DNA of 14,568 bases, taken from positions 1 through 14,568 of the forward strand of contig JAISEX010000129.1 of the NCBI GenBank assembly GCA_031263875.1, read 5' to 3'. The notes beneath the pieces were generated by a model that saw nothing but the letters and a program-made list of their open reading frames with translations, was not told the origin of the DNA and did no database searches. Positions 7,458 to 10,501 of this stretch are shown here, one piece after another. Position 1 is the first letter of the stretch. Every line of letters starts with the position of its first letter. The stretch comes from Eubacteriales Family XIII. Incertae Sedis bacterium. Lineage in GTDB: Bacteria; Bacillota; Clostridia; Peptostreptococcales; Anaerovoracaceae. The translations under genes and the position numbers were made by a program.

Positions 7458-7691
7458 GGGCGCATGGGGCTGTTTCGCAAAATAAATGTGGCAACCCGGT
7501 CATTAAAAGCTCAACAATCAGAAGATTTCAAACACAGTGAAACAGCCCCACCGGGCTCTGCGGGGCTTCGGCCCCGGCGCTCAAGACATGCGCTTGGAGG
7601 TGCGGCTATTTCGCGAGTCTAGCTCCAGCTCCGCTCGTTTACAGCTAAGTCCGCGCCGTGGCTGCTTCGCACCCCTCCGATCCCTTGCGCG
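7458..7691. repeat. Dispersed GC-rich repeat, copy 1 (see 14087-14177)
   Basis: Three blocks recur in the same order near the right end: 7458-7471 with 14087-14100 (14 identical bases), 7553-7567 with 14111-14125 (15 identical) and 7669-7691 with 14155-14177 (23 identical). Spacing differs: copy 1 carries extra DNA between all blocks. It is rich in GGGGCT/CCCC hairpins, a style of non-coding repeat common in GC-rich Clostridia. Confidence 0.75.
7470..7545. mobile_element. 76-bp insertion with inverted ends inside repeat copy 1 (possible MITE)
   Basis: The ends CTGTTTCGC (7470-7478) and GTGAAACAG (7537-7545) are inverted with 8 of 9 matching; including flanking bases, GGGGCTGTTTC (7466-7476) and GAAACAGCCCC (7539-7549) pair perfectly over 11 bp. 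In the related copy near 14096 the two GGGGC/GCCCC sides are separated only by a few bases, so this segment looks inserted into, or expanded from, a hairpin loop. No coding capacity. Confidence 0.45.
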
Positions 7692-7813: not shown

Positions 7814-8051
7814 CCTGTGCGGGCAAAGAACCCGACCCGCCCGTCCTACCACGGCGTTCCCGTTCATCGCACAAACCCAAAAAGAAGCGGGCAGGGGATC
7901 CGACGCGACCATCCTCCCCGTGCCGTCTCCGTCTCCCCTGTGCGGGCAAAGAACCCGCCCCGCCCGTCCGTCCTCCGGCGTTACCGTCTATCGCATAAAC
8001 CCAAAAAGAAGCGGGCAGGGGACCCGACGCGACCATCCTCCCCGTGCCGTC
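7814..8051. repeat. Two tandem repeat units of period about 124 bp
   Basis: Unit 1 is 7814-7927 and unit 2 is 7937-8051. Three sub-blocks repeat: a 21-base block at 7814-7834 / 7937-7957, a block of about 26 bases starting AAACCCAAAAAGAAGCGGGC at 7873 / 7997, and a 27-base block at 7901-7927 / 8025-8051. A decayed third unit can be followed at about 7700-7800 (CGACCCGCCCGTCCT at 7712), and a GTGCGGGCAAA at 14241 begins a diverged copy near the right end. Spacing is far too long for CRISPR and no known transposase is adjacent. Confidence 0.75.
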
Positions 8052-8091
8052 CCCACAAAATAAATAATTTCAAAAATGACCCTGCAAAGTA

Positions 8092-8265: not shown

Positions 8266-9392
8266 ATGACCAATATGAACGAAATAGTCCTCTATCAGCC
8301 CGACACGGCGGTACGCCTTGAAGTGACGCTCGGTGACGAAACAGTTTGGCTTACGCAAGAACAAATCGCGCTGTTGTTTGGTGTCAATCGTCCGGCGGTT
8401 ACTAAGCATCTCGGCAACATATTTAAAACAAAGGAACTCGCCGAAAGATCAGTATGTTCCATTTTGGAACATACTGCGACCGACGGAAAGAGATACCGGA
8501 CCAAATTCTACAACCTCGATGCGATCATCTCCGTGGGCTACCGCGTGAACTCTATTAATGCCACCAAGTTTCGCCAATGGGCGACATCGGTGCTCCGCGA
8601 GTACCTGCTCAGAGGCTATGCCGTGAACCAGCGCGTGGAACGGCTTGAACGCAGGATGGAAGGCGTTGAGGAAAAGGTGGATTTCTTCGTGAGGACCGCG
8701 CTGCCCCCGGTCGAAGGCATCTTCTACGAGGGCCAGATATTCGACGCCTACGAGTTTGCGAGCAAACTGATAAAGTCCTCAAAGACGAGCATCGTCCTTA
8801 TCGACAACTATGTGGACGAAACGGTACTCGGTCTGCTCGCGAAACGCGGAAAAACGGTATCGGCGACGTAGGGTAAAGGGAGCTATACGAACCCGGTCCA
8901 CAGAAGCGGATTTTCCCCAGACCTTCGGCAAATTTTAAGCACATACTACCGGTATGCACTTAAAATTCTGCCTGTGTTCTGAGAAAAATCCGTCTTCTGT
9001 GGACTCTTTGACCTGATAATGGCGGTATTTCAGCGCAGACGAGGCAGCAGGACGCAGGCGTACCCGGTGGTACGCCAAGGACGATAACGAAGTCTGCGGT
9101 GAAATACCGCTATTACAGGCGGATTTGTATAGCTCCCTTTACCCTATACACCGCGAAAATCAGCAAGGCGCTTCAGGCGGACGCGGACAAACATAACAAG
9201 CAATACCCGCCCATTATTATTGAGAGAGTATCCGGCATTCATGACCGATTTCTGATTATCGACGACAACGTTTATCATATCGGAGCGTCGATCAAAGATT
9301 TGGGAAAGAAGCTGTTCGCGTTTTCAAAAATGCGCGGTGACGCAAAAGAATTGCTGGATAACCTGAACAAGAAGCGCGATGTTGCGTCATAA
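8266..9392 (+). pseudogene. rhuM: rhuM-family gene split by a MITE-like insertion
   Basis: The 5' part (8266-8868, 201 codons) encodes the N-terminal region of a RhuM-family protein (named after a gene of Salmonella pathogenicity island 3; molecular role not established). It contains VWLTQEQIALLFGVNRPAVTKHLGN, a helix-turn-helix-like region (28-52), then FYNLDAIISVGYRVNS (81-96), WATSVLREYLLRGY (105-118) and a coiled-coil-like stretch (119-141). It ends ...LLAKRGKTVSAT at TAG 8869-8871, created by the insertion. The 3' part resumes at 9147 as YTAKISKALQADADKHN, continues with HDRFLIID and VYHIGASIKDLGKK, typical of the RhuM C-terminus and PLD-like in part, and stops at TAA 9390-9392. The two halves are in different frames across the 278 bp. 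A GTG at 9099 within the element could start a 97-aa product but has no good ribosome site. The N-terminal fragment may still be expressed from the strong promoter. Confidence 0.88.
8869..9146. mobile_element. MITE-like element with 20-bp perfect inverted ends, inserted in rhuM
   Basis: The ends TAGGGTAAAGGGAGCTATAC (8869-8888) and its exact reverse complement (9127-9146) bound 278 bp without a transposase gene. If TA is the target duplication, as in IS630/mariner-type transposition, the element proper is 8871-9144 with 18-bp ends. The interior is two large imperfect hairpins. Hairpin 1 (8896-9004): GTCCACAGAAG / CTTCTGTGGAC, CGGATTTT / AAAATCCG, AATTTTAAG / CTTAAAATT, with the self-complementary tip TACCGGTA. 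Hairpin 2 (9017-9115): GCGGTATTTCA / TGAAATACCGC, CGCAGAC / GTCTGCG, and the tip GGCGTACC-CGGT-GGTACGCC. The rhuM homology resumes immediately after it. Family not identified. Confidence 0.9.
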
Positions 9393-9989: not shown

Positions 9990-10501
9990 AGGTACAGAAA
10001 CTGACGAGCGCGGCGCTTGTTGCCGCGTTTATATTCGTTGTCACCTATATCGTGAAAATCCCGATGCCGATTTCTTCGGGCGGTTATATCAATCTCGGCG
10101 ATACGATAATATACCTCGGCGGCCTGCTGCTCGGCGGCTGGCGCGGCGCGGCGGCGGCGGCGGTCGGAAGCGCGCTGTCGGACGTCCTGTTGGGCTATTT
10201 TATTTACGCGCCCGCGACGTTTGTCATCAAGGGGCTGATGGGGCTCGTCTGCGGCCTGATTACGCGGCGTGAGGGGTTTGCGCCGTTTGCCGTGGCTTCG
10301 TCGCTCGCCGGCGTGATAATGCTCGCGGGATATTTTCTCTTTGAAACGTTGTTTTTTAATATCAACCAGGCGTCCGCTTCGGCGTTTTTCAACGTGGCGC
10401 AGCTTATCGCCGGGGTCGGGGTCGCGCTGGCGTTGTATCCCGCTGCGGCGCGCATCGACCGGTCGTTTGACCTGCGCGAGACCCGCCGCAAAAATCTTTG
10501 A
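9986..10501 (+). CDS. ECF transporter substrate-binding (S) component, vitamin unknown
   Basis: A 171-aa, roughly six-helix membrane protein of the ECF S-component type (HmpT/ECF-RibT-like group). These bind a vitamin or precursor and pair with a separate EcfA-EcfA'-EcfT module to import it. Supporting features: the N-terminal MKVQKLTSAALVAAF helix, then PISSGGYINLGDTIIYLGGL (about 28-47), the Gly/Ala-rich GGWRGAAAAAVGSALSDVLLGY (about 51-72), YAPATFVIKGLMGLVCG (about 74-90) and a Lys/Arg-rich end. The INLGD...LGG pattern fits S-components for thiamine or pyrimidine precursors, or pantothenate-type substrates, but I cannot choose. No EcfA or EcfT gene is in the window, consistent with a shared (group II) module elsewhere. 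The start overlaps the Lrp stop by 4 bp. Confidence 0.85.
   Translation: MKVQKLTSAALVAAFIFVVTYIVKIPMPISSGGYINLGDTIIYLGGLLLGGWRGAAAAAVGSALSDVLLGYFIYAPATFVIKGLMGLVCGLITRREGFAPFAVASSLAGVIMLAGYFLFETLFFNINQASASAFFNVAQLIAGVGVALALYPAAARIDRSFDLRETRRKNL

What the first reader, a model, noticed from the sequence alone, without database searches (positions are those of the whole stretch)
8869..9146. MITE-like element with 20-bp perfect inverted ends and two giant hairpins interrupts rhuM
The ends match perfectly over 20 bp, TA flanks both sides, and homology to the RhuM C-terminus resumes one base after the right end. The interior is two independent long hairpins (8896-9004 and 9017-9115), each tipped by an ACC/GGT palindrome. 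No protein is encoded, so it would depend on a transposase elsewhere. The insertion makes an immediate TAG. Removing 8871-9146 less one TA leaves a one-base frame offset, while removing all 278 bp restores the frame but lacks one residue that I expect from relatives (…T-I-YT…). Either the left junction lost a base or the gene was already shifted.
Basis: partly seen in the sequence, partly recalled or inferred. Interest (0 to 1): 0.7.

Follow-up and report, generated by a model that had tools for sequence, protein, structure and literature searches.

The report
Mobile hairpin element with swappable ends
A short non-coding jumping element has broken a gene in this bacterium, and its hairpin core turns up inside related elements with different ends, which suggests that the folded core is what is kept while the ends are replaced.

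Summary
Window 8869-9146 is a 278-bp non-coding element with perfect 20-bp inverted ends, and it truncates rhuM. It is not unique: the same draft genome holds 9 near-complete copies including this one, 3 fragments at contig ends and one 46-bp copy made of the ends alone. A MITE-like reading is supported, but no autonomous partner was found and TA duplication is not proven.

The unexpected part is the interior. Between the ends lie two inverted copies of one ~107-nt hairpin unit. A covariance model of that unit finds it in 21 of 349 genomes and 14 of 92 genera of the host family, own included. 28 of 30 stem pairs covary while the internal loops stay conserved. Within the own genome the ends differ more than the interior, yet change together. 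In genome G006 nearly the same core (81-83 of 86 nt) sits between two dissimilar pairs of ends. Wobble pairs favour one strand of the unit in both arms, but not in the outer stem. That fits a single-stranded fold (RNA or ssDNA) inside DNA-recognised ends. No Rfam family matched at gathering score in the sequence tested.

The parts
8869..9146 (+). whole element, 278 bp, Y-shaped fold
8869..8895 (+). left outer arm, 27 nt, begins TA; outer 20 nt match the right end exactly
   Evidence: in other genera a 27-nt window next to arm B (length set by me) pairs with TA at its outer edge
9120..9146 (+). right outer arm, 27 nt, ends TA
8896..9004 (-). arm A: hairpin unit in inverted orientation
   Evidence: arms A of other genera and of one other own copy (C24) match the models on the strand opposite to arm B; this copy's own arm A passed neither R1 at E 1 nor R2 at E 0.1, and its direct alignment to arm B is reached by 17 of 5000 shuffles
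9005..9011 (+). 7-nt linker between the arms
9012..9119 (+). arm B: hairpin unit, forward orientation
   Evidence: R1 119.8 bits (this copy is in the training set); R2, trained on single-unit loci only, 52.3 bits, E 7e-12
9041..9057 (+). conserved purine-rich internal loop, 5' side
   Evidence: alignments
9077..9092 (+). conserved purine-rich internal loop, 3' side
   Evidence: alignments
8266..8871 (+). N-terminal piece of rhuM, ending at a stop made by the element
9147..9392 (+). C-terminal piece of rhuM

Best explanation
A non-autonomous DNA transposon (MITE-like) that landed in rhuM and destroyed its frame. It belongs to a group, spread through one bacterial family, whose common part is not the ends but a ~107-nt structured hairpin unit. 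Single-unit members are [end][unit][end], about 160 bp. The window's subfamily is [27-nt end][unit inverted][linker][unit][27-nt end], 275-289 bp. Inferred steps: a transposase supplied in trans, probably one that inserts at TA, cuts at the ends; the ends are copied or exchanged as matched pairs, which keeps them complementary while their sequence drifts; the unit acts as a folded single strand, as RNA in transcripts crossing the element or as ssDNA during mobility. Two inverted units would give one correctly folded unit whichever strand is read. Shown: copies, geometry, inverted duplication, covariation, strand-specific wobble, the same core with dissimilar ends. Not shown: movement, transposase, transcription, the unit's function.
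For: Copies: 9 near-complete, 3 contig-end fragments, one 46-bp ends-only copy. Ends covary: within-copy left/right mismatch 9.6% against 23.2% between copies, 0 of 20000 permutations as low; 11 of 26 outer-stem pairs show double changes against 4 of 81 in the arms. Ends differ at 0.21 per site, interior at 0.088; 29 of 54 columns vary against 54 of 223. Unit in 21 of 349 genomes, 14 of 92 genera. R2, trained without arm A or two-arm loci, has 42 matches in the loci searched; 9 loci show arm A, each on the strand opposite to arm B, and none is an arm B read on the wrong strand. 28 of 30 pairs covary, also after dropping 9 opposite-strand rows. Distinct G-U:A-C is 25:11 (arm A) and 25:9 (arm B), each in its own unit orientation, against 14:12 in the outer stem. 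Core 81-83 of 86 identical between dissimilar ends in G006.
Against: No autonomous element or transposase found. 3 of the 9 near-complete copies lack TA on at least one side. No empty site was seen in a close strain, and the rhuM junction is not clean. In genus g12 arm A goes against the wobble bias (1 G-U, 6 A-C), and the orientation test was chosen after an undivided count looked equal (27 G-U, 30 A-C). With R1, arm B read on the wrong strand also scores 28.5-42.7 bits (9 rows) because its stems are palindromes, so R1 alone is weak on the strand of arm A. The A5 alignment was fitted to the model, so its pair counts lean towards the structure. Ends in other genera may have been acquired separately rather than drifted.
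Confidence: 0.72

Rival explanations
1. Ordinary MITE of a TA-inserting (IS630/Tc1-like) IS whose parent is missing from the draft genome; the hairpins are the debris of fold-back formation and have no function.
For: TA at both ends of 6 of 9 near-complete copies and of most two-arm elements elsewhere; stable stem-loops are usual in MITEs (review PMC10969869, passages seen); genome only 67.8% complete.
Against: The interior is better conserved than the ends, and the unit is found in 14 genera with covariation and between dissimilar ends. No PF13358 in the draft genome.
Confidence: 0.3
2. A single-strand (HUH/Y1, REPIN-like) element: each unit is a strand-specific ssDNA hairpin recognised by a tyrosine transposase, and paired inverted units form the mobile dimer.
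For: Inverted dimer of hairpin units and a strand-specific wobble bias resemble the inverted REP pairs of REPINs (recalled).
Against: No Y1_Tnp match in the draft genome; 27-nt complementary ends and TA are not what I recall of that class; units are ~107 nt, REPs 20-40 bp (PMC3733652, start of abstract).
Confidence: 0.12
3. A structured regulatory RNA family, spread by duplication rather than by transposition.
For: Strong covariation, conserved purine-rich loops, placement outside called ORFs in 42 of 42 placed elements, the broken rhuM not being called as one ORF (crude ORF calling).
Against: Copies sit in unrelated places within genomes, one interrupts a gene, ends are inverted repeats, and both orientations are present in the dimer. 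No Rfam match at gathering score.
Confidence: 0.1
4. A module of the genome's REP-like mosaic repeats that moves with them.
For: 7 of 13 copies abut the repeat AGCCCGGTGGGGC exactly; 7 of 8 copies of one end type do, 0 of 5 of the other (Fisher p 0.005).
Against: 6 of 13 copies are elsewhere, including rhuM. The repeat has no exact match in 39 of 40 relatives, whereas the unit occurs in 13 other genera.
Confidence: 0.05

Closest known systems
Bacterial MITEs such as Correia/NEMIS, RUP, Nezha, Chunjie, QMITE2
   Same: Short, non-coding, inverted ends, dispersed, strongly folded; QMITE2 has 23-29 bp ends and a long fold (PMC10969869 passages).
   Different: As I recall them, those families are defined by conserved ends shared with an IS. 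Here the ends vary between genera, stay complementary, and a structured core is shared across different ends.
REPINs / REP-RAYT systems (PMC3116915, listing and start of abstract only)
   Same: Small mobile units in inverted pairs; hairpins (recalled).
   Different: Unit of ~107 nt against REPs of 20-40 bp; outer 27-nt ends with TA; no Y1 transposase found in the draft genome.
TIMEs and mosaic non-autonomous transposons (PMC4133298, listing and start of abstract only)
   Same: Ends used with different interiors (recalled).
   Different: Here the reverse: one conserved folded interior with different ends.
Candidate structured RNAs from comparative genomics (PMC2864571, listing and start of abstract only; Rfam 15)
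   Same: Covarying stems around conserved loops.
   Different: Not in Rfam at gathering score; carried by repeats with inverted ends.

Membership tests
Bacterial MITE | short element without protein-coding capacity | tested here: met
   278 bp; no ORF of 80 aa or more lies within it
Bacterial MITE | terminal inverted repeats | tested here: met
Bacterial MITE | several dispersed copies | tested here: met
Bacterial MITE | target-site duplication | tested here: inconclusive
   TA at both ends in 6 of 9 near-complete own copies and in most two-arm elements of other genera; rhuM junction not clean; no empty site from a close strain
Bacterial MITE | autonomous relative with the same ends | tested here: inconclusive
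   End pattern in the own genome: only copies of this element, a lone end-like site on C140 and a 3-mismatch site on C124. 295 other family genomes: one single 1-mismatch site, G083. Genome contigs: two single matches, not inspected. Genome 68% complete
IS630/Tc1-type MITE | IS630-type (DDE_3) transposase in the host | tested here: not met
   PF13358 absent from the draft genome; the missing third leaves room, so not filed there
REPIN/RAYT | Y1 (RAYT) transposase in the host | tested here: not met
   PF01797 absent from the draft genome
REPIN/RAYT | GTAG or CGTC tagged REP unit | not tested
   tag not examined
Known RNA family (Rfam 15) | match at the curated score | tested here: not met
   0 matches in the window and in 18 loci; one sub-threshold mir-1295 hit, 26.5 against 100 bits, E 0.0042

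The most novel reading that the evidence does not exclude
The ~107-nt hairpin is an undescribed structured nucleic acid (RNA or ssDNA) that is itself the selected unit. It is carried by otherwise unrelated miniature transposons, which swap their ends around it, and it is doubled in inverted orientation so that one copy always folds correctly.
Probability: 0.35. Interest if true: 0.78.

Novelty: new variant of a known kind. Interest (0 to 1): 0.6.

Why it matters
As I recall, MITEs are usually described by their ends, with the middle treated as filler. Here the middle recurs in 14 genera with compensatory changes and a strand preference, while the ends change. If the core has a function, it offers a testable reason why some non-coding transposons persist, and a structured motif to probe for RNA or ssDNA activity.

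Tried and rejected
BLASTN with the window copy found nothing in 60 relatives. A copy nearer the consensus, run over 349 family genomes with only 2 candidates scored per genome, found the interior in G196, G099 and G086; its three other hits (G178, G149, G113) are 34-39 nt long and I dropped them as chance. The end pattern in genome contigs gave two single matches (Vibrio, Agrobacterium), taken as chance and not inspected; none in viral contigs. A loop pattern in viral contigs gave 58 stretches; the model found no match at E below 0.2 in those 58 loci, so I rejected them. Stricter loop patterns and another genus's end pattern gave 0. Plasmids and phages: no match for two queries, the window copy and a single-unit element. 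The same-genus genome G001 gave one match of 116 bases at 71% identity, too distant for an empty site. Within G000 alone G-U and A-C counts looked equal (27 and 30); only separating the arms by unit orientation showed the bias, so the test was chosen after seeing data. First arm-A/arm-B comparison was weak (17, 3 and 3 of 5000 shuffles); the models settled it. L099's match (26.7 bits) is unproven and not counted. Of the 55 matches outside the own genome I examined 43 for ends; of the other 12, two are arms A of examined elements, one (G099:C73) was read, and nine were not examined. Papers: eight searches showed no description of this unit in their listings; I read only passages of PMC10969869 and PMC3733652. 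The host family name is inferred from 'Clostridiales Family XIII' labels on two RhuM relatives; Anaerovoracaceae is recalled.

Full report
What was checked. The 278-bp element at 8869-9146 is as described: 20-bp perfect inverted ends, 27-nt arms at 93%, a Y-shaped fold far more stable than shuffles as RNA and as DNA, and a stop at once in rhuM. The two rhuM pieces, searched and aligned apart, match the 11 intact relatives that I took from the 120 listed, 70-90% identical to the N-terminal piece; all 11 have one residue more at the junction. So the insertion is real, and the frame oddity is real too: the junction is not a simple TA duplication.

Copies. The own genome (1.87 Mb, 319 contigs, 67.8% complete) has 9 near-complete copies (window, C15, C33, C311, C173, C24, C32, C26 with about 30 extra bases and C267 with an 80-bp insert, both in arm B), 3 fragments at contig ends (C73, C14, C180) and a 46-bp copy at C133 made of the two ends only. 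Three contigs end inside copies, so the number is a lower bound. Of these 13, 7 abut the repeat AGCCCGGTGGGGC, which occurs 269 times exactly in this genome, not at all in 39 of 40 relatives and twice in the last. 7 of 8 copies of one end type are at the repeat and 0 of 5 of the other.

Ends against interior. In 9 aligned copies the outer 54 columns differ at 0.21 per site on average and the interior 223 at 0.088; 29 of 54 outer columns vary against 54 of 223 (Fisher p 5e-5). The ends nevertheless stay complementary: the left and right ends of one copy mismatch at 9.6%, ends of different copies at 23.2%, and 0 of 20000 permutations were as low (10 copies, the 46-bp one included). Double changes occur in 11 of 26 outer pairs but in 4 of 81 arm pairs. 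An element recognised only by the sequence of its ends should show the opposite (inference).

Relatives. BLASTN with another copy found the interior in three other genera: G196 (276 bp), G086 (278 bp) and a deleted copy in G099. In G196 and G086 the 27-nt ends differ in sequence from the own ones but pair with each other at 25 of 27. A covariance model of arm B (R1, 9 sequences) then found 21 of 349 family genomes and 14 of 92 genera at E 0.001, own included, with several copies in G156 (8), G012 (6), G006 (6) and G099 (6). Of its 64 matches, 55 lie outside the own genome; I examined 43 of these for ends with a 27-nt window. 17 of 43 are two-arm elements whose ends match at 21 or more positions; with the own genus they make 7 genera, and uncut ones are 275-289 bp long. 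10 of 43 are single-unit elements of 159-162 bp with ends pairing at 21 or more of 27. The other 16 are cut off by contig ends, pair more weakly or had no clear ends under this test; in at least six of them (L174, L175, L177, L178, L201, L203) inverted ends show at another offset.

The two arms are one unit. R1 matches arm A of G156 (56.5 bits), G086 (42.4), G151 and G248 (41.9 each, near-identical loci), G218 (39.3 and 30.4), G260 (34.9) and one own copy, C24 (29.9), each on the strand opposite to its arm B. R1 is weak on strand by itself: nine arms B read on the wrong strand score 28.5-42.7 bits in the same call, because the stems are palindromes. A second model, R2, built only from 15 single-unit loci, settles it: among its 42 matches in the 39 loci searched, arm A appears in 9 loci, always opposite to arm B, and no arm B is matched on the wrong strand. 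The best is the inverted arm A of G151 (59 bits, E 9e-14); the window's arm B has 52.3 bits, E 7e-12. So the window's element is an inverted dimer of a unit that also exists alone, including once in the own genome (C33, about 10192-10294). The window copy's own arm A was detected by neither model; its assignment rests on its homologues.

Folding and strand. In the 68 distinct aligned rows, 28 of 30 pairs show compensatory changes and 93.2% of cells pair; shuffles average 63.7% and slid controls reach at most 43.2%. After dropping nine rows that are arm B read on the wrong strand, 59 distinct rows still give 28 of 30 and 93.1%. The alignment was fitted to the model, which overstates pairing, but the contrast is large. 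Pair mismatches were then counted with a symmetric palindrome alignment. Counting distinct position/class combinations per genus over 25 elements, G-U exceeds A-C in arm A (25:11, p 0.029) and arm B (25:9, p 0.009), each in its own unit orientation, that is on opposite strands of the element, but not in the outer stem (14:12). A replication or transcription mutation bias would push both arms the same way in element orientation, so it does not explain this. Genus g12 goes the other way in arm A (1:6). The orientation test was chosen after an undivided count in G000 looked equal.

Exchange of ends. In G006 three elements with one pair of ends and two with another pair carry cores that are 81-83 of 86 nt identical, while end scores between the groups are reached by 23-47 of 500 shuffles, so no clear similarity. 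In the two within-group pairs tested, ends match at 27-29 of 29. The core has thus been placed between dissimilar ends.

Mechanism. I commit to a MITE-like transposon moved in trans (inferred) by a transposase acting on the ends, with TA as the likely target, and carrying a folded unit that is itself under selection. Whether the unit works as RNA or as ssDNA cannot be told from sequence; purine-rich loops lean towards RNA, inference only. The insertion in rhuM is a by-product: of 42 placed elements none lies inside a called ORF, the broken rhuM itself not being called as one (crude ORF calling).

Comparison. It works like a MITE and meets its structural features, but the target duplication and an autonomous partner are unproven. 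IS630-type and Y1 transposases were not found in the incomplete genome, so I do not file it under either. No Rfam family matches at gathering score.

Limits. Most genomes are drafts; the last family-wide search used strict filters and scored 11 candidates per genome, so 21 of 349 is a lower bound; nothing outside this family was searched with the models except fetched loci.

Noticed in passing
own genome; window 7545-7557 (-) holds one: REP-like repeat AGCCCGGTGGGGC: 269 exact matches, 323 with at most one mismatch, built into mosaic repeats with interchangeable left and right modules; no exact match in 39 of 40 relatives.
   Followed up: partly
L083:2845-2926 (own genome C267): An ~80-bp palindromic repeat, with at least 36 further places in the genome, sits inside arm B of one copy, so repeats nest in each other.
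   Followed up: partly
L087:3434-3479 (own genome C133:8433-8478): 46-bp copy consisting of the two ends only, in a mosaic repeat; either an arm deletion at the base of the hairpins or a separate form.
   Followed up: partly
L077:2160-2330 (own genome C33, about 10160-10330): Single-unit element with different inverted ends (ends seen by eye), 48.3 bits with R2.
   Followed up: partly
L166, L167 (genus g99), right end of element: The element's end reads GGAGGGTA a few bases before an ATG, so it could supply a ribosome-binding site to the next gene.
   Followed up: no
single-unit elements in other genera: 8 of 13 single-unit elements with both neighbours called lie between divergent genes (crude ORF calling).
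   Followed up: no
window 7852-7930 and 7976-8054: 79-nt direct repeat, 92% alike, part of a run of repeats spaced 121-124 nt upstream of rhuM.
   Followed up: no
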